Source of the DNA: Saccharothrix sp. HUAS TT1
GTDB taxonomy: Bacteria > Actinomycetota > Actinomycetes > Mycobacteriales > Pseudonocardiaceae
Length of the DNA: 64,000 nucleotides
Assembly (NCBI RefSeq): GCF_040744945.1
Contig: NZ_CP160453.1
Location: 5,270,001 to 5,334,000, forward strand
Reading direction: 5' to 3'
The notes beneath the pieces are model-generated. The model saw only the letters and a program-made list of their open reading frames with translations, did no database searches and was not told the origin of the DNA. The translations under genes were made by a program, and so were the position numbers. Positions 28,631 through 40,324 of this stretch are shown here, in pieces. Each line of letters opens with the position of its first letter. The first letter of the stretch is position 1.

Positions 28631-30310
28631 GAACGAGTGGTTTGTCGCTGATTGCGTGATCAACGATCTGAGTTGGGAAGGGCGAGGAATGCTGAGTGTT
28701 GCTACTGGTTGAGCAGGATTCGCTTGCTTATCAGGGCGAAGCTTGCCCGTCCGTAGGTCTGCCGCTTGAGCATCTCGATCTTGTTGACGACTCCTTCGGT
28801 GGGACCGTTGCTGTGGGGCAGGGTCAGCCCTGCCAGCACCGCCTCGTTGTCCTCGCGCAGACGGTGGACGAAGCGGTGCAGGGCGGGCAGGTCGTCGCCC
28901 AGAACCGCGTCGATCCAGGCGTCGAGATCGTGCCCTCGGCGGCGGGTGGGGATCGTGGCGAACTCGCGGACCCGCTGGGCGAGCGTCGTCATCGGCGGAC
29001 AGCTGGTGATCAGATCCTGGAGATGGCTGCGATCATGCTCGGGCAGGTTCTCCGGTTTGCTCGTCAGCCAGGTGACCCGGCGCCGTGGGGAGGGTGGGAC
29101 GCGGTCGGGTTCGGCGCGGCCTTGTTTGAGGTAGCGGACCAGGAGGTTGGCGCTGCCGGGGTAGCCCAGGGCGTGGATCTCGGCGAGCAGGTGGGTGACC
29201 GGGACGTCGGGCTGTTGTGCCAGGCGGCGGCGTAGGTGGTCGCGGCAGGGGTCGACCATGCTGCGCCGGTAGGGCGGAGGCGCCGCAGCTGCTCGGCGGA
29301 GGGGATGCGGGCGTAGCGCTTGACCGTGTTGAGCGATATGCCGAGTCGTCGTGCGCATTCCAGCAGCCCGACTTCCTGGTCGAGCAGGCCGTGGACCGTG
29401 GTGTGCCGCTGCAGGGCCCGCTCCCCCTCGGCCTTGGTGCGCCTTGCCGGTCCGACGTACCAGCACGTGCTGTGGGCGGTCACGGTCCTCTCCGCCGCCG
29501 CGACCGGGTTGTTCCAGATGTGCCACCGGTCGCCGATCTGGACGGCGTCGGGGGCGCCTTGGCGGACGGCTTCGGCGTAGGTGGCCGAGCCGTCCCCGCA
29601 GACCATGGAGACGCCGGGATGCTCGCGCAGCCAGGCGGTCAGGGGCGCGGCCCTGCGGTTGGGCAGCACGTCGACCCGGCGGTGCGTGACCGCGTCGATC
29701 AGCACGGTCGCGTAGCGGCGACCACGCCGCAGGGCGAAGTCGTCGACCCCGAGCACTTCACCACCCCGATCGACGGATCGGGCAGGGCGTGTACCAACCG
29801 CAGCAGCGTGCCTCGACTGGTGGGCAGTCCGAGACCGGCGGCCAGACGTGCTCCGGTCCGGCCCGCCAACGCCAATCCGATGCGTTCCAACGCGGTGCGC
29901 GACAACAAGGTGCGCCGCGTGTACCCGATGGTCAGACCGTCGACCTGTTCAGCGAACGTCCCCACCGAGCAGCCCTGGTCGTCGCAGAAGAACCGGCGCA
30001 CCCGTAATCGCAGCACCACCGGCCGACCGGCCACGGGCGCGTCGTCCGGCTTCCGGTCGTAGCGGCTGTGCACCCGACCCGACCGCGCACCGCAGGATGG
30101 ACAAGGCGCGGACTTCACCTTCGTACATGCTCGGACCCGCACGCCCGAGGAGCTCCTCTCGACCCGCTCCACCTTCACACCGGCGAGGTGCGGCAGCAGA
30201 ACGTCCAACCAGTCATGATCACACCCCGGCCATGATCACAGACTCGCCTGAGCTGCCATTGGACACCTAAACTCGTTGATCACGCAATCAGCGACAGAGC
30301 CGGCTCGTTC
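28631..30310. mobile_element. ISL3-family insertion sequence with long terminal inverted repeats
   Basis: The left end 28643-28666 (TGTCGCTGATTGCGTGATCA and four more bases) is perfectly repeated in inverse at 30273-30296. With a small gap the repeats extend outward to GAACGAG at 28631-28637 and CTCGTTC at 30304-30310. Length about 1.68 kb. No clear 8-bp target duplication is visible. The transposase inside is frameshifted, so this copy is probably immobile by itself. Confidence 0.85.
28702..30208 (-). pseudogene. ISL3-family transposase, two frameshifts
   Basis: Minus strand, three collinear frames. Frame 1 (30208 to about 29757) has the zinc-ribbon CPSCGARSGRVHSRYDRK and a second Cys pair in FFCDDQGCSVGTFAEQ. 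Frame 2 (about 29756-29280) has the DDE core LGVDDFALRRGRRYATVLID with VCGDGSATYAEAV, then an HTH-like ARRLGISLNTVKRYAR. Frame 3 (about 29270-28702) carries the C-terminus with the expected Glu (GPTEGVVNKIEMLKRQTYGR). The shifts are near 29756 and 29275. All catalytic residues are encoded, so the damage is recent or an artefact of sequencing. Confidence 0.85.
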
Positions 30311-30410: not shown

Positions 30411-33400
30411 TCAAGGTCCGCTATGGACCAACGACGCCCATAAATCCGGACGGGCGGGTTGCTCGTCGCGCAACTCCCTCACGACCGCGTTGAGGACGTA
30501 CGCGGCCCTGCCCGCATCCGGGCTATCCGGCAGGCCCAGGTAGAACCGCTTGGCGGCGACCGCCGCGAAGGAGTCTCCCAGCGGCCACAAACCGGCGATC
30601 ACGTGCTTGAACCCCGCCAGGTGGAACGCCGAGGAGAGGTGGATCGACTCGTCGGGCAGTTGCGGCCCGCTGTACGCGGTCGAGCAGGCCGACAGGTACG
30701 CCAGTTCCGCCGACTCCATCCGCAGGCGGCTGATGCGGGCGGCGGTGAGAGGGCGGTCGTGCAGGGCCAAGGCGCTGCGCGACGGGCTCCGCGCGTCCTG
30801 CACGGCATGGCAGGCGAAGTGGCACCAGGTGCTCCGCCCCAGGTGGGTCAGCACCGCTTCGGTGGTGGCGCGGTTGTCATCCAGCAGCGGCAGGTCCGGC
30901 CGGGCGGTGTGCAGGGCTTCGGACTCGGCGGTCGTTCCCGGCAGGTCCCCGAGCCCAGGGGTGTGCTCCAGCGCGACGACCAGTTGCCGCCGCTCTCCCG
31001 CGGTTGGACGGTTGCGGGCGTGGGCGAGTGCGCGCAGCGTCGGCACGTAGGAGGAGACGCAGTGGTCCAGCGCGCCCGGTCGGCCCGGGTGTCCGGCGGC
31101 GTGCAGGGGGAGGGAGCCGATGAGCCCCATCGGCAGCCACCAGAGCCTGGTCGGTCGATCCGGGTCCCGGCCGGGCACGGCGTTCAGCACCGGGGACACG
31201 ACACCGTCCCACAGCCAGGCCAGGGTCTCGGTGAACACCTGCTGCCGGACCCGGATGGTATGCAGGGTCGGGCGACCGTGCACGACCTCCCGGAACTGCG
31301 CCGCGCGGTCGGCCGTCTCCCGCAGCCCCGGCAGTTCCACGACGACCGGCGGACCTGCGGGGTCACGATGACGGCGTCTCCGCGACGCCGGTCCGCGTTC
31401 ACCAGCACGGCGACACCTCCCGCCACGGCCATGCGCAGGTCCTCGTACGCCGGGGGCAGCAGGAACCGGTGCAGGCCGGGTAGGGCGCGGATCTGCTCCA
31501 ACAGGTGGTCGTATTCCCGCCACAGCCGCCGTCGAGGGTGATCGGCGCCCGACTCGCCGTCGTCTCCGGCCGCCGGTTCGAGCAGGACGCGCACCTGCTC
31601 GAACCGGTCCGCCAGCGCTGCGTCCACCGCGCGCAAGTCGGTGAGGTCGGAGCGGGAGTCGAGTTCGGCCGCCAGCATGACGCCCCGGCCCAACTCCGCC
31701 AGTTCCACCGCGCCGACTGCGTCGTCCACGGCCAGGTGCGACGCCACCGCCCCACCGACCAGGTCCAGCCCTTGGCCCAACAGGTATTCGCGGTCACTCC
31801 GGTCCGCCCTGGGCGCGGCCACGACCGGCAGCAGTGACACGGCCTCGTCCCACGACCCCACCGCCGTGCGCCAATCCTCCGCCAGCGCAGCCAGAGTGCC
31901 GACCGCCCGACCTGCGGCGACGCGGTTGACCGGGGACGCGGTGCGCGCGGTCGCCAGTGCGGAGGCGAGCCGTCGCACCCGGCCGGCATGTTCCGCGATC
32001 GCGTCGCCGTACCGCGCGGTATAGGCCCCGCACAGCGTCATGACCGTCATGGGCAGGCTGGTGTGACCGTCCGGGGTCGCCGCTATGGCCCGCTCGCCGA
32101 GTTCGACGGCCTTGCGCGCGTCTTCCTCGTCGTGGTTCGCCGTGTACCTGGTGATGTGCAAGCTGGCCAGGTTGGCGAGATCGAGTGCCCGTCGCGGGTG
32201 GTTCTCGGGCATCACCGACACGTTGATCTCGTCGGTGATGATGGCCTTGTCGAGATCGGTGGGATCGGCGGCATGCCGGTAGCGCGCTCGGTAGGCCGCG
32301 GCGAGGGCGGAGAGGGCGTGGGGCAATTTGATCGGGTCGTCGGCGACCGCGCCGGCCGCCTGCTCTCCGGCCTCCACCGCCCGGTCGGCGTCGGCCGGGT
32401 CTCGGGTCCGTTCGAAGCGCCTGCGGCGGGCGACCGCCAGGTTCGACAGGTACATCGGGTAGGCCAGGTCGGTGCCCGGCCCGCACGCGGCGGCCCGTTC
32501 ACCGAGTTCGATCGCCCGGTCCAGGGCCGCGGCGTCGCCGTGTGCCTGGAACCTCGCCAGGTGGGCCCCGGCGGTGTTCGCCAGCGTTCCGACGAGGTCG
32601 TCGTCCCCGTCCGGGGTCGCCCGGACCGCCTGCTCACCCATTTCGACCGCGGTCTCCAGGTCGTCGGGGTCACCGGTGCCCCGGTGGCGTTCCAGGTGGG
32701 AGAGCGACAGGTTGGACAGGCGGACCGCGTATTCGGCGTGGCCCGGTACCGCCGCGGCGACCGCCTGGGCGCCCATTTCGACCGCGAGGTCGGCGTGGTG
32801 CGTTTCCTCGGTGCGGATGAACGCCCGGCGGTGCAGTTCGCCCAGGATGTTGAGTCGCCTGCCCAGCATCGGATCGCCCGGGGCTGTCATGCGCACGCTC
32901 TGCTCGGCCGTCTCCAACGCGCGTCGGAGGTCGTCGACCGCGTGCGTCATCTCGTAGCGGTGGTGGTACAGGCGTCGCATCTTGGACAGGAACATCGGGT
33001 AGTCTTGGTCGTCGGTCCGGGTGCGGGCCAGGACGATATCGCTGATCGTGATGGCGTGCCGCAGGTCTGTGGCGTCTCCGCGTCGCAAGAACCGCGTCTC
33101 GTACGCTTCGCTGAGGGTCGACCGGCCGATCGGGAGGAGCGGGTGTTCCTCGGGCAGGTGGACGAGGGCCGCGGTCATCAACGCGATGCCGACGTCGAGC
33201 ACCACTGGGTCGATCTCCCCGGGATCCGCGCCCAGGAACTCCGCCGCCGTCATGAACTGCGCCTCGACGCGGCGCGACGGGCCGACGAGCGGCCGTAGAG
33301 GTGGTGGGACGTGGTCGTCGACCGCGATCGCGTAAGGGCGGAACAACGCGATCGACGCGGCGAGTTCTCGGTGGATCGCGCTGTCGGGCACGGAGGCGAC

Positions 33401-33667
33401 ACCGGCCTGGCGCCGTGCGCCCAGGGTTTGCAGGCGAGCGAGGTGGAACGCGCCGACGACGAGGTGCGCGGTGAACAGTCGGTCGGACTCCGCTGCCGTC
33501 GGGTGGTACCGGTCGGTGGGCTCGGCCGCGTGCAGCAGTGCCTGCGCGTCGGTCGACGCGGCTTCGGAGAGGAGGTCCGGCTGATGGCGATCGTCCTCGC
33601 TCAGCTCACGCACGCGCATGAGAAGGCGGTCGAACCCCATCCCGGGCCGGTCCGACGCACGTGTCAC
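30411..33667 (-). CDS. TPR-CHAT protease (second of the operon), interrupted by one frameshift
   Basis: About 1085 residues if the frame is restored. The N-terminal two thirds are tandem TPR-like helical repeats (units of the type LDRAIELGERAAACGPGTDL). The C-terminal third is a CHAT domain, a caspase/separase-clan cysteine protease fold: TRLWWLPMGLIGSLPLHAAG, the His motif WCHFACHAVQDA and the Cys motif AYLSACSTAY, ending LWASLVHSGP. Both catalytic residues are present, but they lie in a different frame from the TPR part. The switch is at a run of four G (+ strand 31359-31362), where one extra base would join AVIVTP to AGPPVVVELPGL. Start GTG overlaps the stop of the upstream gene (GTGA). 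Family members cut specific protein partners when activated; the partner here is unknown. Confidence 0.8.
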
Positions 33668-34857
33668 GACGTGCCGCCGTCCGGTACGAGCAGGTAGGCC
33701 GCCGCCTGGAAGTTCTTCACCACGACGTCGACCCGTCGGAAGTCGATCTCGGAAAACTCTTCGAAGCGGCTGATCAGCATGTGGTGCACGGTGTCGGACA
33801 CGAGTACCGCGACCGGCACGTCCGGGTGCCGGCGCACGACCTCGCGGAGCGGGTCGCTGTCGACCAGCCGGCAGAAGTTCACGATCGCGTCGGCGGTGAA
33901 CCCGAGTGGGCCCAGGCCGACGGTGCCGACGTCCATCGCCAAGCGCAGCCTGATCGGGTCCTCGTGCGCCGCGTTGTCCGCCGCCAGCCGCCGCGGCAGA
34001 GCCGTCAGGAGCGTGTCGAGCGCCTTCGGCAGGTCGGTGTCCGGTTCGAAGAAGGCGACCACGCCGTCCCCGGTGCCCTGGAAGTAGTCGCCGTTCAGGA
34101 CGATGCCCGCGTCCTTCAGCACGCCGTCCACGACCTCACGAAGGCGCTCTTGGACCCGTTCGCGTTGGCGGATGGTCCGTTTGCCGTAGCCGACCACGTC
34201 GAGGGTGAAACCCAACCGCACGTTGATGGCCGCGGTGCGCACCGGTTCGACGTGGGGGAGGCGGATGGTGAACCCGTCGGCACGACCGCGGGGGTGCAGG
34301 CCCCAGGAGTCGGCGGGGCGCAGCGCGTAGTCCGCGACCGCCTCGCCGACCAGTTCCCGGCACCCTTGCGGTGTCACGACCGTCAGCCAGCCCACGTCCG
34401 AACCCGACCGGACCCCTTCGGTGCGCCGCCAGCGGACGCCCGGGCCGCCGACCTCCACGCACTCCAGCACCGGCGTGGTCGGAGGCACGGGCACTTGGTC
34501 GTGGAGCACTCGGCCTGACAGGTCGGATTCGTAGCGGATGAAGTCGAGGTCGTGCGTGACCGCATAGCGGGTGTGGGGCACTTCCGCAGTCACCGACCTC
34601 GGGAGCACGTCGAAGACCAGCACGCCGGGCGTGGTGAAGCGCAACCCGACCTCGGCCCACGTCGGCGGGGGCGCCTCCGGGTCGAGCAGGGTCGCGTAGT
34701 TCACCTTGACCAGGTAGGCGTCGTGCCCTGCCTGCGCGGCGGCCAACGGGTCGACGCGCATCCCGTGAAAGGTGACGCCGCCCAGACGGATGTCGGTGCT
34801 GTGGAACGACCTCAGCTCCTCGGCGAGCATGAGGTCGACGTGCGCGAGGGTCTGCAC
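33664..34857 (-). CDS. Protein with C-terminal nucleotidyl-cyclase-like domain, between two CHAT proteases
   Basis: 397 residues. Residues 1-190 form a compact domain of mixed strands (RLGGVTFHGMRV, AYLVKVNYATLLDP, LRFTTPGVLVFDVLP) that I cannot assign; it may correspond to the N-terminal domain of the CATRA (caspase and TPR-repeat associated) class I recall from comparative genomics. Residues 215-365 look like a class III nucleotidyl cyclase fold in its actinobacterial conflict-system form: LDVVGYGKRT with Asp220, GTGDGVVAFF with Asp264, then MDVGTVGLG and AIVNFCRLV with Asn327 and Arg330. Both metal-type aspartates are kept, so activity is possible, although many relatives are thought inactive. 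GTG start with TGGAG 7 bases upstream, 15 bases after the first CHAT gene. It could sense or make a nucleotide signal for the flanking proteases (inference). Confidence 0.75.
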   Translation of the reverse strand: MQTLAHVDLMLAEELRSFHSTDIRLGGVTFHGMRVDPLAAAQAGHDAYLVKVNYATLLDPEAPPPTWAEVGLRFTTPGVLVFDVLPRSVTAEVPHTRYAVTHDLDFIRYESDLSGRVLHDQVPVPPTTPVLECVEVGGPGVRWRRTEGVRSGSDVGWLTVVTPQGCRELVGEAVADYALRPADSWGLHPRGRADGFTIRLPHVEPVRTAAINVRLGFTLDVVGYGKRTIRQRERVQERLREVVDGVLKDAGIVLNGDYFQGTGDGVVAFFEPDTDLPKALDTLLTALPRRLAADNAAHEDPIRLRLAMDVGTVGLGPLGFTADAIVNFCRLVDSDPLREVVRRHPDVPVAVLVSDTVHHMLISRFEEFSEIDFRRVDVVVKNFQAAAYLLVPDGGTS

Positions 34858-34872
34858 AGGCGCTCCAGGTGG

Positions 34873-37800
34873 TCAGTTGCCGACGTGGATGGACGCCGCC
34901 CACGTCATCGGGGCGGTGAGGTGCTCCGCGCGCACCAGGCGCACCGCGTGGTGCAGGGCGAGCGCGGTGTCCGGCAGGTGAGGGGCGATGCTCCCGCCGC
35001 GGGTCAGGAACCCGTGGACGGCCGCGCCGATCCGCGCGGCCGTCGAGTTGACCGGGGTGAGCGTGCCGATCACGTTGGCGCAGCCCGCCAGGTGGAACGC
35101 CGCCGTGATGTGCACCGCCTCGTCGGCCAGCCGGACCGCCGTCAGGGAGGTGTGGCACGCCGACAGCAGCGCCAGGCCCGTGCCGCCCAGGTCGAGGCGG
35201 GAGAGCAGCTCGACGGTCAACGCGGCGTCGGCGTGGTCGTGCAGCAGCAACCGCCCGGCACCCGGGTCGACCGGGTCGCCGACGGCGTGGCACGCGAAGT
35301 GCACGACCGAGCAGCGCGGCAGGGCGTCGAGCACCGCATCCCGGGTCGCCTCGGCCGAGACGAGCGTCCGGGCGCCGGGCAGCAGCGCGACGACCTCGTC
35401 CAGTTCGGCGACGGCGGAGGGCAGCGGGGGCGCGCCGGGCGTGTCCGGCATCGCCACGACGAGCGCGGGGCCGTTGGCGCCGGTCGCGCGGCGGCGACTG
35501 TGCGCAAGGCCGCGGATCGAGAACGTGTAGGACGACACCACCCGGTCCAGCACCGACCGCCCCTTCCCGTCGAGGTGGCGACCTGCCGCGTGCAGTGGCA
35601 GGTGGGTCAGCACGCCGACCGGGCACCACCACAGGCGCGGCCACTCGCCTTCCGGTGCGGCGCGCAAGCCGAGCTCGTTCAGGATCGGTTCGGTCACGTT
35701 GTCCCACAACCACTCCAGGACCTCGTGCGCGGCCCGGTGCGCGGCGGCGCGCGCGCCGTAGGTGGGCGCCGTGGTCATCTGGGCGACGTCGAACTTCTCC
35801 GCCTGCTCCGCGACGAGCCGGTGTGTCACCTCCGGTAGCGGGACGACCCGCACGGGCTGTCCTTTGCGGAGCACCAAGGCATCCGAGCGTGATGCCGTGG
35901 CGTAGACGTATACGACCGGCCCATGGTCGGCGTGTTCGGACAGCTCGGAGGCCGACTCGGGCATCAGGAAGCGGTCCAGGCCCGGCCTGCGGCGGATCTC
36001 GTCCAAGAGCGCCGACATCCGCTGCCGCAGGGTTTCACGGCGGTGCGGGGGCACGGCGAACGCAGCTTCCCCGGAAACAGGGTGCTCGGCGGCGTCCAGT
36101 TCGTCGCGCACGCGGTGGAACTCGCCGTGCAGCACGGGTTCCTGCCGCTCCAGGCGGCGCAGGTCGCCCAAGGTGTCGATCTTCTCCGCGTGCAGCAGCA
36201 CCCGGGCCTGTTCGAGCAGTTCCACGGCCCGGTCGGGCCGTTCTGCCGTCACAGCCGTCGCGGCGGCGTCCGCGGCGAGCCCGGACGCCTGCCCCAACCC
36301 GAACTCCCGATCGGCCTGGAGCAGGCGGCGCGGGGCGAGGGAGGGCAGCACCGCTACCGCTTCCTCGTACGCGGCGACGGCGGCCGCCGGGTCTCCGGCA
36401 GCGAGTTCCACCTGTCCCAGCCCTCGTGCGGCTGCGACGCGTTCCGACGCGGTCGCGGCCGTCGACCTCAGCACGTGGGCGAAGGTCGTGCGGGCGTCGT
36501 CCAGCGCCCGACGCTCCGACAGGTGCTCGCCCAGGGCCAGCAGCGCGGCGCCGAGGGTGAGCAGCAGGGGCGGTTCCTGCGGCGAGGCCACCGACTCCTC
36601 GACCGCGTCCGCGGCGAGCAGGCAATGGGCGATGGCGGCGCGCAGGTCGTTCACGTCGCCGGTGCGCGGATACCTGTTCAGCAAGGCGTAGGCCGTGTTG
36701 GCCAGGGCGGACTTCGGGACCTTGCGCCCCGCGACCGCTGCGGTCGCCCGCTTGCCCACCTCGACCGCCTCGTCCACCAGAGCCAGGTCGTCGGTGTGCG
36801 CTGCGAGCGCCATCAACGGAATGATCAACTGCGTCCGGTCGTCCGATCCGGGAGCGGCCAGTGCCTCCCGACCCAGCTCGACTGCGGTGCGCAGCGCCTC
36901 CTCGTCACCGTCGCGCTCGAAGCGCAGGACGGTGACGGCCGCGGCGCCCAGCAGGATCGACGCGCGTTGGACGTGCCCGATCGGGACGGCGCCAGCAGCC
37001 TGCCGGGCCGCCGCGATCGCTTCGGCCAGGACCGACCGCTCACCGGTGCGTTCGTAGAGTGTCCGCAGCGTGCCGCCCAGTTCGGCCAGGACCAGTGCCC
37101 GGTCGGCAACGCCCGCATCCGTTCGCGCCACTGCGGTCGTCGCGGCGGCGGCCGATTCGACCAGCGCGCCGACATCGCCGGTGAGGTTGAACGACCCCCT
37201 CAGGACGGCGGCGAGGAGCGCCTCGGCGTGCGCCCGGTCCGGGTCGTCCTCGGAAAGGGAGTCGACCGCGCGCCGCGCCAGGGCGACAGCCTCCTCCAGC
37301 GCCTCTCGGTCACCCGCCCGCACCGCCACGGAGCTGCGGCGGAACGCGAGGTTGGCGAGCATGGCCGGTTTGTCGCCGTCATGATCCGGGGTGTTGTCGT
37401 AGGCGGTTTGGAACGCCCGGACGGCTTCGGACGCGGCCCTGTCGTCACCGGTCTCCTCGAACAGGTCCCACAGCGCGTTCGCCAGGCTCGCCCACGCCAC
37501 ACCGAGATCCGGCCCTGCGGCCACGGCGTCGCGCCCGACCGCGACCGCTTCGTGCAGCGCGTCCACGTCCCCGAACTGCATGTAGAGCGTGCGCAGCGAC
37601 GCGCACAGGTTCGCCGAACGACCGGCGAGGTTCGGGGTGCCGGGGGGCGACGCGGCCAGGGCGCGGCGGCCCGTGTCGACGGCTTCCCGCAGGGTCGAGT
37701 GGTCCGAGGTGGCCTGGAACCACGCTTCCAGCATCGCGGCGAGGTTGGACAGGGCGAGCGGGTCATCCGGCGAGCGTTCGAGCGCACGGCGGGTCGCGGT

Positions 37801-38022
37801 GACCGCTCCGGCGAGCGCGTCCACGTCATCGGTGCGGCTGTGCAGCATGAACAGGGCCGCGCCCAGGTCGCACAGACGATCGGCTGGTGGGTTCACGATG
37901 TCGACCGCACGTCGGAACAGGTCGACTGCCTCGCGCAGTACGGCCAGTTCCCCTGTCCGCTGGTACCGGCGCGCGAGTTCGCGCGCCCTCCGGTGGAGGG
38001 CCGCGGAATCGCCGTTCGCCAT
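34873..38022 (-). CDS. TPR-CHAT protease (first gene of the operon)
   Basis: 1049 residues. Residues 1 to about 620 are TPR-like helical repeats of roughly 45-50 residues with recurring LANLA/ALAA cores and D-x-x-AL-x-EAV-x-x-GR motifs. A linker helix bundle follows (LLEQARVLLHAEKIDTLGDL). The CHAT domain covers about 700-1049: LWWCPVGVLTHLPLHAAGRH, His912 in VVHFACHAVGDP, Cys956 in ALLSACHTSL, then DEAVHITAAFHLAGCANVIG. The His/Cys dyad is complete. No signal peptide or membrane segment, so cytoplasmic. It is transcribed first in a three-gene minus-strand operon; a leaderless promoter can be proposed directly upstream. Proteases of this type are known in caspase-like bacterial immunity and in Gram-negative type III-E CRISPR partners; no CRISPR is present here. 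Confidence 0.88.
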   Translation of the reverse strand: MANGDSAALHRRARELARRYQRTGELAVLREAVDLFRRAVDIVNPPADRLCDLGAALFMLHSRTDDVDALAGAVTATRRALERSPDDPLALSNLAAMLEAWFQATSDHSTLREAVDTGRRALAASPPGTPNLAGRSANLCASLRTLYMQFGDVDALHEAVAVGRDAVAAGPDLGVAWASLANALWDLFEETGDDRAASEAVRAFQTAYDNTPDHDGDKPAMLANLAFRRSSVAVRAGDREALEEAVALARRAVDSLSEDDPDRAHAEALLAAVLRGSFNLTGDVGALVESAAAATTAVARTDAGVADRALVLAELGGTLRTLYERTGERSVLAEAIAAARQAAGAVPIGHVQRASILLGAAAVTVLRFERDGDEEALRTAVELGREALAAPGSDDRTQLIIPLMALAAHTDDLALVDEAVEVGKRATAAVAGRKVPKSALANTAYALLNRYPRTGDVNDLRAAIAHCLLAADAVEESVASPQEPPLLLTLGAALLALGEHLSERRALDDARTTFAHVLRSTAATASERVAAARGLGQVELAAGDPAAAVAAYEEAVAVLPSLAPRRLLQADREFGLGQASGLAADAAATAVTAERPDRAVELLEQARVLLHAEKIDTLGDLRRLERQEPVLHGEFHRVRDELDAAEHPVSGEAAFAVPPHRRETLRQRMSALLDEIRRRPGLDRFLMPESASELSEHADHGPVVYVYATASRSDALVLRKGQPVRVVPLPEVTHRLVAEQAEKFDVAQMTTAPTYGARAAAHRAAHEVLEWLWDNVTEPILNELGLRAAPEGEWPRLWWCPVGVLTHLPLHAAGRHLDGKGRSVLDRVVSSYTFSIRGLAHSRRRATGANGPALVVAMPDTPGAPPLPSAVAELDEVVALLPGARTLVSAEATRDAVLDALPRCSVVHFACHAVGDPVDPGAGRLLLHDHADAALTVELLSRLDLGGTGLALLSACHTSLTAVRLADEAVHITAAFHLAGCANVIGTLTPVNSTAARIGAAVHGFLTRGGSIAPHLPDTALALHHAVRLVRAEHLTAPMTWAASIHVGN

Positions 38023-38059
38023 TATTTGATTCTAACACCATTTCCAATGTAGATTTCAA
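38023..38059 (-). promoter_or_regulatory. Proposed leaderless promoter of the CHAT operon
   Basis: On the minus strand TTGAAA (38059-38054) and TAGAAT (38034-38029) are spaced 19 bases, or 18 if TTAGAA is taken. Only 6 bases separate the -10 box from the ATG at 38022, so transcription would start at or next to the start codon. No Shine-Dalgarno sequence is present. The AT-rich patch abuts the IS3 remnant that begins near 38103. Confidence 0.5.
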
Positions 38060-38102
38060 ATGGTGAAGTTCTCCGCATGATTACGGATTTTTCGAGATGA
38101 GC

Positions 38103-38303
38103 TTCCCCCTGATAATCCGAGATGGTTGTTACCTGGATCGGGTCGGTGATGCCGGGATGGCAGTCGGTTCGGCCTGGACTGTGTGCCAGGCGACTTCGTA
38201 CTCGTCGGGGCTGAGCCAGCCGAGGTCCTTCTGGATGCGTTCTCGGCTTCGTCGCGGGTGCGCCAGGAGCGGCGGTAGACCAGCTCGATCTTGAGCGTGG
38301 AGA
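38103..38303 (-). pseudogene. IS3-family transposase C-terminal remnant (copy 2)
   Basis: Minus strand: STLKIELVYRRSWRTRDEAE in one frame, then after an internal deletion, in another frame, IQKDLGWLSPDEYEVAWHTV and a C-terminus ending TRSR before the stop. These are the last parts of an IS3-type OrfB. The bases after the stop match those after copy 1 at 20593-20623 (GATCCAGGTAACAACCA in both). The upstream side is joined directly to the truncated IS5-type transposase at 38304. Confidence 0.7.
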
Positions 38304-39080
38304 AGAGATGCGGAGAATGGTGGGGAGTTCGGCCAGGCGGGCGCGGTAGCCGGTGGCGAGGATCTTCCAGTTCTTCAGGTGGGCGATGGCGTGCTCGACT
38401 GCCCATCTGATGCGGCTGACGCTGGTGTTCCAGGTCTTGTCGGCGGGTGTGCGGCGTCTGTGGCCTGGGCGTTTGCGGCGGGGTCGGAGGGTGGGGGTGT
38501 CCTGGTGGCCCAGGTCGGCGATCACGGTGGTGTCGGTGAGCAGGTCGGCCAGGCCGGTGCGGGTGTAGGCGGTCTTGTCGTGGGCGCGGCCCTCGACCGG
38601 CTGGGAGACCGCGAGCAGGGCGCCGTCCAACGCGGCCAGGACCCTGCACCGTCACGCCGGCCCGGAGGTGTTCGCTGTTGTAGTTGGCCCTGCGGTGGTC
38701 CGCGTGGTCGCTGGTGGGGATCAGGGCGCCGTCGACCAGCACCACCCGTTCTCGCAACACGTCGGGCAGCGGTGGGGTGTGGGGGGCAGGTGACCTGGCC
38801 GATCAGGGGTGCGATGCGGCGGAACACGCGGGAGACGGTGGGCTGGGAGCCGCCGAACCAGTCCGCCGCGACGGTCTGGGCCAGGTTCTGGCGCAACAGC
38901 ACCAGGGTGAGCAGCACCGACCGGTACAGGCCCAACGCCGGCGGTCGTCCTACCCGCCGACCGGCCGGTCCCAGGACCTGGTGGATCCGGGCGACCAGCT
39001 CCTGGATCCGGTCGTGGTCGAGCCCGGTCGTAGACTGGTAGCGCAACAGCCCCGCCTCGTGGTGGATCGTTTCTGTGAGA
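38304..39080 (-). pseudogene. IS5-family (DDE_Tnp_4-like) transposase, frameshifted and 3'-truncated
   Basis: Minus strand pieces in three frames: LRYQSTTGLDHDRIQELVAR with the helix-turn-helix region NLAQTVAADWFGGSQPTVSR; then LRERVVLVDGALIPTSDHAD with the first catalytic Asp and YNSEHLRAGVTVQ; then DGALLAVSQPVEGRAHDKTA, TTVIADLGHQDTPTL with the second Asp, and RWAVEHAIAHLKNWKILATG with the Glu. It stops abruptly at PTILRI, where the IS3 fragment begins, so the normal C-terminus is lost. The start lies near 39080; inverted repeats are not evident. Confidence 0.75.
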
Positions 39081-39147
39081 GGAAACCGACCCTGCCCAGA
39101 CGGGGCTGTTGCGCTGTCACCCCAAGACCAACCTTCCGAATAACGCT

Positions 39148-39327
39148 CTAGAACTCGGCTCCGGCGAGCAGGCGGAGGTGTTCGTCGGTTGCCGCGGTGG
39201 CGGACAGGCCGGGTTGGGTCAGCGCGGCGTGGCACAGGGCGTGTGCGGTTCCTCGTCCCGACCCGCCGTCCGCGTGGTTGACACCGACACCGACAACCGG
39301 CCGGAGGCGAAGCTGATCAAACCGGGC
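39148..39327 (-). other. Short open remnant of an unidentified gene
   Basis: Minus-strand frame of 59 codons, closed by a stop at 39148 and opened after another stop at 39330, with no clear start codon. It reads FDQLRLRPVVGVGVNHADGG and later TAHALCHAALTQPGLSATAA, which looks like real protein rather than random high-GC frame. I cannot assign a family. It could be the surviving C-terminus of a gene removed by the neighbouring IS decay. Confidence 0.25.
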
Positions 39328-39376: not shown

Positions 39377-40324
39377 GTGGCGTTCGTGATCACCGAGGAG
39401 GAACGAGCCGCTCGCTCACAACGCGCCTGCGATGCCGCAGTCGCCGCCGTGACCGCGCTGGGGCTGGACGTGTCGGAGGCGAAGGTCCTGTACGACGTCT
39501 TCTCGGTGGTGGTGGACCTCGCACCGTCGCCGGTCGTCGCGCGCGTGCCGGTGGTGACCCCTCGCGGCATCACCTCGACGGGCTTTCAACGCACGGAGTT
39601 GGACGTGTCGAGTTGGATGGCGTCGCGCGGCGAGCCGACGGTCGTGCCCAGCCCGCTCGTCCCGGCGGAGCCCGTCGAGCGCGACGGTTTCGCAATGACC
39701 TTCTGGGAGAAGGTCGAGGGCGTGCTTCCCAGCGACTACGACGCGGTGAAGCGCATGCCCGCCGTCGCCCGCCTGCACTCGATCCTGGCCGAGTACCCGG
39801 GCGAGACCGGCTTCTTCCCGGGGATGCAGGGGTACGTCGACCTCGCCTTCGACGACCTGGAGGGCCGCGAGGACCTGTTGCCCGCCGCCGACCTGGCCCG
39901 CGCCCGCGCCGAGTGGGCCGTCCTCTCGCCCGTCGTCGCGTCACCCTCAGCTTTCGCGCAGGCGTTTCCCGGCGTTCCCGTCCAGGTGGTCCACGGCGAC
40001 GCCCCGTTCTACAATCTGATCGAAACGGCCGACGCCGTGCTGTATTCCGACTACGAACACGTCGGCGTCGCCCCGGTCGAGTGGGATCTCGCGCACACCG
40101 GCGAGGAGGCGATCGCCTCCTACAACGCCACCGCGGTCGACCTGGGGTTGCGCACGGTCGACACCGACGTCCTGCGCGCCATGGAACGCCTGCGCGACCT
40201 GCAGATGGTCGCGGCCCTGGCGATGATCCCGCAGCTCCCGCTGCTGGCCGACGGCCTGTCGCCGACGCTCCAGACCTGGCGGGCCACCGATCCTTGGCAG
40301 GATGTAAACGGCTCCTCGCAGTGA
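39377..40324 (+). CDS. Aminoglycoside-phosphotransferase-like kinase (APH/choline-kinase fold)
   Basis: 315 residues. Catalytic Brenner motif VVHGDAPFYNLI (HGDxxxxN) at about residue 205 and metal-binding YSDYEHVGVAPVEWDLA at about 225 are intact. The N-lobe (VLYDVFSVVVDLAPSPVVAR) fits the APH fold. Members phosphorylate antibiotics, choline, hydroxylated metabolites or other small molecules; nothing here identifies the substrate, and resistance should not be assumed. GTG start with AAGGGG about 9 bases upstream. It is monocistronic, with no coupled neighbour, and lies just outside the IS-bounded CHAT island. Confidence 0.82.
   Translation: MAFVITEEERAARSQRACDAAVAAVTALGLDVSEAKVLYDVFSVVVDLAPSPVVARVPVVTPRGITSTGFQRTELDVSSWMASRGEPTVVPSPLVPAEPVERDGFAMTFWEKVEGVLPSDYDAVKRMPAVARLHSILAEYPGETGFFPGMQGYVDLAFDDLEGREDLLPAADLARARAEWAVLSPVVASPSAFAQAFPGVPVQVVHGDAPFYNLIETADAVLYSDYEHVGVAPVEWDLAHTGEEAIASYNATAVDLGLRTVDTDVLRAMERLRDLQMVAALAMIPQLPLLADGLSPTLQTWRATDPWQDVNGSSQ

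What the first reader, a model, noticed from the sequence alone, without database searches (positions are those of the whole stretch)
30411..38059. CHAT - cyclase-like - CHAT operon: candidate conflict or signalling system
Two large TPR-CHAT cysteine proteases flank, in one minus-strand operon, a protein whose C-terminus keeps the metal-type aspartates of a nucleotidyl cyclase (Asp220, Asp264) and whose N-terminal domain I cannot assign. The layout resembles the CATRA (caspase and TPR-repeat associated) conflict systems I recall from comparative genomics. A paired-protease version with a possibly catalytic cyclase-like centre would be worth describing. Genes are spaced 15 bases apart or overlap by 4, and the island is enclosed by decayed IS elements, as defence cargo often is. 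Seen: domains, motifs, spacing. Inferred: that the middle protein senses or makes a nucleotide that controls the proteases.
Basis: partly seen in the sequence, partly recalled or inferred. Interest (0 to 1): 0.8.

Follow-up and report, generated by a model that had tools for sequence, protein, structure and literature searches.

The report
Cyclase and caspase-like protease defence pair
An actinomycete carries a small operon pairing a caspase-like protease with a two-part protein, an undescribed beta-rich domain joined to a nucleotide-cyclase-type enzyme, and relatives of this enzyme sit beside known anti-phage effectors, so it is probably an infection sensor that signals to kill or stall the infected cell.

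Summary
The three minus-strand genes are real, but the second TPR-CHAT gene is split by a frame break, and the trio is not conserved. The conserved unit is a pair: TPR-CHAT-A plus the middle protein. In the five other loci with full-length or nearly full-length relatives of the middle protein, a TPR-CHAT frame abuts or overlaps it. The middle protein is a fusion. Its C-terminus (about 214-393) is a class III nucleotidyl-cyclase fold with metal aspartates Asp220 and Asp264 invariant in 32 of 32 rows. The N-terminus (6-203) is a beta-rich domain in no library searched; elsewhere it is fused to TIR domains, often near CHAT or pPIWI_RE genes. Five of 26 loci of this cyclase clade carry PycTM, the Pycsar effector, three directly after the cyclase gene. 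I read it as a CATRA/Pycsar-like signalling-defence variant: N-domain senses, cyclase makes a cyclic nucleotide, TPR-CHAT (and PycTM where present) executes. Architecture and gene association are shown; catalysis, product, direction of control and phage defence are inferred. New variant of a known kind.

The parts
34873..38022 (-). TPR-CHAT-A: helical TPR-like N-terminal part and C-terminal CHAT cysteine protease domain; His912 and Cys956 of the dyad present
   Evidence: PF12770 E 2.9e-42; TPR models weak, best TPR_12 E 1.3e-4, below cut-off; His and Cys in 37 of 37 CHAT rows
33664..34857 (-). Middle protein (397 aa): N-domain fused to a class III-type nucleotidyl cyclase domain
   Evidence: no Pfam, NCBIfam or PADLOC family over a cut-off
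34243..34842 (-). N-domain of the middle protein (residues about 6-205): beta-rich, not in Pfam, shared with TIR proteins often near CHAT or pPIWI_RE genes
33679..34221 (-). Cyclase domain (residues about 213-393): Asp220, Asp264, Arg305, Arg330 invariant in 32 of 32, Lys381 in 31 of 32
31184..33667 (-). TPR-CHAT-B, TPR half (reading frame ends in sequence foreign to the family after the frame break)
   Evidence: (27% to A's TPR part over 584 aa)
30411..31523 (-). TPR-CHAT-B, CHAT half in another frame; CHAT domain about 30417-31262
   Evidence: (PF12770 E 2.4e-44); CATRA-type lineage
33663..38095 (-). Block of DNA shared with G110 (88%, 4434 columns): TPR-CHAT-A plus middle gene plus about 70 bases upstream; defines the conserved unit
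28702..30208 (-). ISL3-type transposase remnant, split over frames (left boundary)
   Evidence: DDE_Tnp_ISL3, Zn_ribbon_ISL3
38022..39235 (-). DDE_Tnp_4 / HTH_Tnp_4 transposase remnant, split over frames (right boundary)

Best explanation
The conserved unit is a two-gene conflict (probably anti-phage) system: TPR-CHAT-A plus an N-domain-cyclase fusion. Shown: the fusion, the class III cyclase fold with its metal aspartates, membership in the clade of CATRA cyclases, recurrent coupling to TPR-CHAT, and PycTM beside several cyclases of that clade. Inferred: the N-domain, which elsewhere is fused to TIR domains in conflict loci, senses or docks an infection signal; this releases the cyclase, which makes a cyclic nucleotide; the signal leads to activation of the effector, the TPR-CHAT cysteine protease (and PycTM where it is present), so that the infected cell dies or stalls. 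TPR-CHAT-B is a CATRA-lineage protease gene that came to lie downstream and is now split.
For: Full-length N-cyclase proteins in five loci (window, G110, G085, S. purpureus L109, S. barkulensis L110) and a nearly full-length one in Streptomyces LUP30 (L111) have a TPR-CHAT frame within 15 bases or overlapping. In the cyclase clade (100/99 support) CHAT lies in the held flanks of 19 of 26 loci by my profile, 20 with L051 by Pfam, against 0 of 13 loci of cyclases placed outside. PycTM lies in 5 of 26, and CHAT or PycTM in 22 of 26 (L051 counted by Pfam). PycTM follows the cyclase directly in G085 (Pfam E 2.6e-15), L113 and L125 (E 1.6e-18), sits upstream on the same strand with CATASP in L127, and is convergent to the CHAT gene in L110. 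Two loci (L113, L125) have PycTM and no CHAT in the held flank, most have CHAT and no PycTM: they look like alternative outputs. CHAT is listed as an abortive-infection protease in other defence systems (Borvo, type III-E; table passage of PMC10952713). Catalytic residues are invariant; the Asp-Asp spacing of 44 equals that of EaPycC and AnPycC (numbers from passages of PMC11224242). Profile hits to class III cyclases, best E 2.2e-6; Foldseek 1wc1, 5d0h, 8jsz uridylate cyclase. The N-domain is fused to TIR in 21 of 24 intact N-domain places of the family and to the cyclase in 3.
Against: No activity has been measured. The asparagine four residues before the transition-state arginine of class III cyclases (position recalled) is absent in 18 of 18 clade rows and present in 2 of 32 in the wider set, and the base-selecting positions match neither published pyrimidine set, so the product cannot be named. 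No cyclic-nucleotide-binding domain was found in either TPR-CHAT. The window genome has no PycTM, so its output could only be the protease or something unknown. PADLOC's PycC model hits 3 of 32 cyclase domains, best E 0.011, and none of the four window frames scanned. Four of 26 clade loci have neither CHAT nor PycTM (L053, L055, L068, L124). Two PycTM genes stand beside cyclase hits that I did not place on the tree (G022, G060), so PycTM may not be limited to this clade. No phage challenge data; no match in the phage collection of 50,697 records.
Confidence: 0.5

Rival explanations
1. Order reversed: the TPR-CHAT protease is the sensor and switch. When triggered, it cleaves the linker of the middle protein (about residues 200-213), frees or activates the cyclase, and the cyclic nucleotide acts elsewhere (on PycTM where present, on an unidentified receptor in the window strain).
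For: In CATRA systems an 'effector position' is named, held for instance by GT4 domains (one sentence in PMC8195603); the cyclase may stand there. A low-confidence linker at 206-209, longer in the Streptomyces relatives, separates the domains. Three loci hold CHAT and PycTM together (L039, L110, L127), which fits protease, then cyclase, then PycTM.
Against: L113 and L125 have the cyclase with PycTM and no CHAT in the held flank, so a neighbouring protease is not always needed. No cleavage site was tested.
Confidence: 0.28
2. The cyclase-like domain only binds a nucleotide or dimerises; the middle protein is a scaffold or inhibitor that gates the protease by binding.
For: The usual asparagine is missing in all 18 clade rows and present in only 2 of 32 in the wider set; inactive cyclase domains are described in related conflict systems (PMC7159879, passages).
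Against: Both metal aspartates and Arg330 are invariant in 32 of 32 and Lys381 in 31 of 32, over identities to the window row down to 23%, which is hard to explain without catalysis; PycTM neighbours imply a diffusible product.
Confidence: 0.15
3. A regulatory pair with no role in phage defence (for example development or stress signalling in a multicellular actinomycete).
For: Cyclases of the wider family are common in this bacterial family (68 of 150 genomes), and the 13 examined loci placed outside the clade lack CHAT and PycTM; no phage test exists.
Against: Rare and patchy distribution (N-domain in 22 of 390 genomes); outside the pair no DNA shared with G110's locus, IS flanks, and partners (CHAT, TIR, PycTM, pPIWI_RE) that are conflict-system domains.
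Confidence: 0.07

Closest known systems
CATRA ternary conflict systems (Pfam CATRA-N PF20269, CATRA-C PF20270, CATASP PF20271; Burroughs and Aravind 2020, not read, cited in PMC8195603)
   Same: Cyclase domain of one clade at the C-terminus of a protein coupled to a TPR-CHAT gene; TPR-CHAT-B belongs to a CATRA-linked CHAT lineage.
   Different: CATRA-N and CATRA-C are absent and replaced by an unrelated domain (hhalign probability 0.3%); no room for CATASP between the genes. Not every CATRA protein has this cyclase: the window genome's own one (L126) gave no match to my cyclase profile.
Pycsar (PycC cyclase plus PycTM or PycTIR)
   Same: Class III cyclase fold, same Asp-Asp spacing, PycTM beside several cyclases of the clade, including a bare 193-aa cyclase with PycTM in Nocardia crassostreae (L125).
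   Different: The window locus has no PycTM and a protease instead; an extra N-terminal domain; PADLOC PycC barely or not matched; product unknown.
TPR-CHAT proteases such as Csx29 of Craspase (type III-E CRISPR)
   Same: TPR-like part plus CHAT domain with His-Cys dyad; the Csx29 model aligns to the CHAT parts (NF041237, E 2.6e-9 and 1.1e-4, far below its cut-off of 300 bits).
   Different: Partner is an N-domain-cyclase, not Cas7-11 (CRISPR arrays were not searched for).
N-domain-TIR proteins near pPIWI_RE or CHAT genes (found here)
   Same: Same N-domain: 25-35% identity in the eight TIR rows of the profile; E 4.0e-38 to 1.5e-77 for 13 places not used to build it.
   Different: TIR in place of the cyclase.

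Membership tests
CATRA system | CATRA-N domain (PF20269) | tested here: not met
   no match in the middle protein at E up to 1; 13 of 19 proteins scanned match, as many as the CATRA-type proteins put in; the six N-cyclase proteins were the rest (the table names only the window one, no match)
CATRA system | CATRA-C domain (PF20270) | tested here: not met
   as above
CATRA system | Adjacent TPR-CHAT or caspase gene | tested here: met
CATRA system | CATASP small protein (PF20271) | tested here: inconclusive
   no room between the genes (15-base gap, 4-base overlap); small frames outside the operon were not scanned
CATRA system | C-terminal effector domain of the type found in CATRA proteins | tested here: met
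   cyclase clade 100/99 with CATRA cyclases
Pycsar | Class III cyclase domain with two metal aspartates | tested here: met
Pycsar | PycTM or PycTIR effector at the locus | tested here: not met
   no PF18967 match in the window genome; met in the G085 and S. barkulensis relatives. PycTIR was not searched
Pycsar | Match to the PycC family model | tested here: not met
   no match; 3 of 32 cyclase domains, best E 0.011, the window's not among them
Pycsar | Product cCMP or cUMP | not testable with these tools
   base-selecting positions match neither published set
CHAT cysteine protease | CHAT fold with His-Cys dyad | tested here: met
   PF12770 over cut-off for A and for the CHAT half of B; His and Cys in 37 of 37 rows
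CHAT cysteine protease | Proteolytic activity | not testable with these tools
   no assay

The most novel reading that the evidence does not exclude
TPR-CHAT proteases are a third effector class of Pycsar-like signalling: a cyclase that carries a new infection-sensing domain makes a cyclic nucleotide that switches on a caspase-like protease, and the same sensor domain is plugged onto TIR enzymes in CHAT and pPIWI_RE loci, so that one undescribed domain serves as an interchangeable front end of several defence systems.
Probability: 0.33. Interest if true: 0.8.

Novelty: new variant of a known kind. Interest (0 to 1): 0.6.

Why it matters
It links three things that I did not find joined in the passages read here: CATRA/CHAT caspase-like systems, Pycsar cyclic-nucleotide signalling, and an uncatalogued domain that is also fused to TIR domains near pPIWI_RE. 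If right, it gives a testable answer to what the cyclase in CATRA-type systems is for (it signals to PycTM or to a protease), and names a short two-gene unit that can be assayed directly. A full-text search for Pycsar, CATRA, 'CHAT protease' and TPR-CHAT (at least two of four) listed eight papers. Two of them hold Pycsar with CATRA or CHAT: a Panoptes paper that names CATRA in one figure legend (passage) and a review that lists CHAT and Pycsar as domains of separate systems (passages). A search for both 'pPIWI-RE' and 'TIR domain' found none. The key 2020 J Bacteriol paper on CATRA is not held, and most subscription papers are not in the library, so part of this may be in print.

Tried and rejected
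Single-sequence scan of genome contigs with the middle protein: nothing. Profile of the N-domain against PDB: no match at E up to 1. N-domain as a divergent CATRA domain: rejected, hhalign probability 0.3%. Single C-domain against PDB by phmmer: only a chance hit; it needed the 32-row profile. Profile of the 18-row alignment A5 against PDB: weak, best E 0.22, an adenylate cyclase. Pfam on the 32 cyclase domains: no significant family; Guanylate_cyc in 1 of 32 at E 0.12. Foldseek also listed beta-rich pore-forming toxins, at rmsd 13-26 A and TM-scores of 0.17-0.34: rejected as generic beta-sheet matches. Phylum-wide N-domain search: 1 of 396 genomes, the window's own, with only 8 candidates scored per genome; family-wide 22 of 390. 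Search of 297 genomes around S. barkulensis with its N-cyclase protein at E 1e-40: only itself. Plasmid collection: 2 weak matches to the cyclase half; the better one lies beside an AAA ATPase and an IS5 transposase, no CHAT or PycTM annotated. Empty-site test through the right-hand neighbour gene: the gene is in 12 of 25 genus members, but the three examined share no flanks with the window, so insertion could not be shown. Paper search 'pPIWI-RE, TIR, CHAT' returned noise. A second AlphaFold2 job (N-domain alone) had not finished at the last look and is not used. Programmed frameshifting in TPR-CHAT-B: nothing seen points to it, but it was not excluded; assembly error and decay also remain open.
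Full report
WHAT IS THERE. On the minus strand, TPR-CHAT-A (34873-38022, 1049 aa) is followed after 15 bases by the middle protein (33664-34857, 397 aa) and then, with a 4-base overlap, by a TPR frame (31184-33667). The CHAT part that should follow lies in another frame (30411-31523); the frames change over within about 31340-31370. So the second protease gene is split as the sequence stands; whether by mutation, assembly error or programmed shifting (nothing points to it) cannot be told. Broken ISL3-type and DDE_Tnp_4-type transposase genes bound the island.

THE MIDDLE PROTEIN IS A FUSION. It matches no Pfam, NCBIfam or PADLOC family over a cut-off. A family-wide search showed two separate halves: residues about 210-393 match 9 further places in the window's own genome and most of the matches in 68 of 150 family genomes; residues 1-204 match a different, rarer set.

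C-TERMINAL HALF. A 32-row alignment (A3) has Asp220, Asp264, Arg305 and Arg330 invariant, and Lys381 in 31 of 32. As a profile it finds 28 PDB sequences at E up to 10; the best 21, and 25 in all, are named as nucleotidyl cyclases or cyclase receptors (best 3mr7, E 2.2e-6; uridylate cyclase 8jsz, E 0.063). AlphaFold2 on an 18-row alignment (mean pLDDT 75.2, pTM 0.56; most ten-residue blocks of the C-terminal half between 75 and 95) matches class III cyclases in Foldseek (5d0h TMt 0.74, 8jsz TMt 0.45). The two metal aspartates are 44 residues apart, as are D102/D146 of EaPycC and D62/D106 of AnPycC (passages of PMC11224242). Against full catalysis: the asparagine normally four residues before the arginine (recalled from class III cyclases) is absent in 18 of 18 clade rows. 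Base-selecting positions (T218, Q260, T262, V267) match neither published pyrimidine set.

LINK TO CATRA. Three proteins scanned singly (L042, L050, L113) and 13 of 19 scanned together, as many as the CATRA-type proteins put in, match CATRA-N and CATRA-C and carry this cyclase at their C-terminus. They were found through the cyclase, so this does not say how many CATRA proteins have one; the window genome's own CATRA-N/C protein (L126, beside a CHAT gene) gave no match to my cyclase profile. In a 47-row tree the six N-cyclase proteins, 15 CATRA cyclases, a bare PycTM-linked cyclase and three others form one clade of 25 rows (100/99), with the window genome's nine other cyclases outside; a 40-row tree repeats the clade and adds L068. 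The window protein has no CATRA match, and the N-domain profile does not resemble CATRA.

LINK TO CHAT AND PycTM. Of 26 loci in the clade, CHAT lies in the held flanks of 19 by my profile, 20 with L051 by Pfam; of 13 examined loci outside it, 0. CHAT density in nine genomes (92 matches in 80 Mb) gives about 2% by chance per locus (loci are not fully independent, L122 and L123 are near copies). PycTM (PF18967) lies in 5 of 26: directly after the cyclase gene in G085 (L039), L113 and L125; upstream on the same strand with CATASP in L127; and convergent to the CHAT gene of the N-cyclase pair in S. barkulensis (L110). In Streptomyces LUP30 a PycTM also lies about 3.3 kb past the CHAT gene of the N-cyclase locus, beyond the stretch held. 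CHAT or PycTM is present in 22 of 26; the exceptions are L053, L055, L068 and L124 (the last a fusion with a kinase-like domain). L127 was fetched because of its neighbours; without it the counts are CHAT 18 (19), PycTM 4, either 21, of 25. Two further cyclase hits that I did not place on the tree (G022, G060) have PycTM about 0.2 kb away. The window genome itself has no PycTM.

THE N-DOMAIN. It is found in 22 of 390 family genomes, 25 places: 3 are N-cyclase fusions, 21 are fused to TIR domains (Pfam TIR_2 confirmed on two; the others by my profile) and 1 is a fragment. Of the 21 N-TIR loci, 9 have a pPIWI_RE gene in the stretch held, 8 a CHAT gene, 2 only a caspase-DEAD helicase gene, 2 none of these (local profiles, seeds checked by Pfam; the CHAT match in L099 is weak). 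The AlphaFold2 model makes the N-domain all beta with a low-confidence stretch at 85-129. No solved relative was found by sequence. Its recurrence in front of two unrelated enzyme types in conflict loci suggests a sensing or docking role; that is inference.

THE UNIT IS A PAIR. Full-length N-cyclase proteins: window, G110 (89%), G085 (41%), S. purpureus (39%), S. barkulensis (36%); Streptomyces LUP30 matches residues 136-397. In the first five a TPR-CHAT gene lies within 15 bases or overlaps; in LUP30 the CHAT frame runs through the cyclase gene, so its start is unknown. DNA shared with G110 covers only A plus the middle gene (33663-38095). In a 37-row CHAT tree, A groups with the CHATs of G110 and G085 (100/96), while B groups with CATRA-linked CHATs L050 and L121 (100/99). 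So B is a CATRA-lineage protease that came to stand behind the pair. His and Cys are kept in 37 of 37 CHAT rows; A's spacing (912-956) is close to H585-C627 of the Craspase TPR-CHAT (passages of PMC9729208).

MECHANISM. Most likely (0.5): N-domain senses, cyclase signals, TPR-CHAT executes, with PycTM as an alternative or additional output. The interchange of CHAT and PycTM beside one cyclase clade is the main argument for CHAT as output. Main rival (0.28): TPR-CHAT acts first and releases the cyclase. Binding-only cyclase (0.15) and a role outside defence (0.07) are less likely. None of the enzymatic steps was shown.

LITERATURE. Seven full-text searches. Passages only were seen of PMC7159879, PMC8195603, PMC12657218, PMC11224242, PMC3702460, PMC9729208 and PMC10952713. 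The 2013 pPIWI-RE paper (PMC3702460) has no occurrence of TIR, caspase or CHAT as whole words. The primary CATRA paper is not held, so what it says of the cyclase is unknown to me. Verdict: new variant of a known kind, interest 0.6.

Noticed in passing
L044, L045, L047, L048, L049, L096, L097, L100, L104 (unnamed Pseudonocardiaceae genomes): The N-domain, fused to a TIR domain, sits near pPIWI_RE modules in 9 of 21 N-TIR loci; the 2013 pPIWI-RE paper does not hold the words TIR, caspase or CHAT.
   Followed up: partly
   Followed up: partly
L127:5115-11842 (Streptomyces sp. LUP30): PycTM, CATASP and CATRA-cyclase in a same-strand run with convergent TPR-CHAT: a CATRA system that carries a Pycsar effector.
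   Followed up: yes
L125:7977-9279 (Nocardia crassostreae): A bare 193-aa cyclase of the CATRA clade overlapped by the reading frame of a PycTM gene: a minimal Pycsar-like pair.
   Followed up: yes
L105:10041-13121, L108:9980-13015: N-TIR genes followed by proteins that fuse a caspase domain (Peptidase_C14) to a DEAD helicase.
   Followed up: no
L124:6548-8596: Cyclase of the CATRA clade fused to a kinase-like domain.
   Followed up: no
window 39377-40324 (+): 315-aa gene with no Pfam match at E up to 0.001, in 12 of 25 genus members; the three examined share no flanks with the window, so it may be a mobile single gene.
   Followed up: partly
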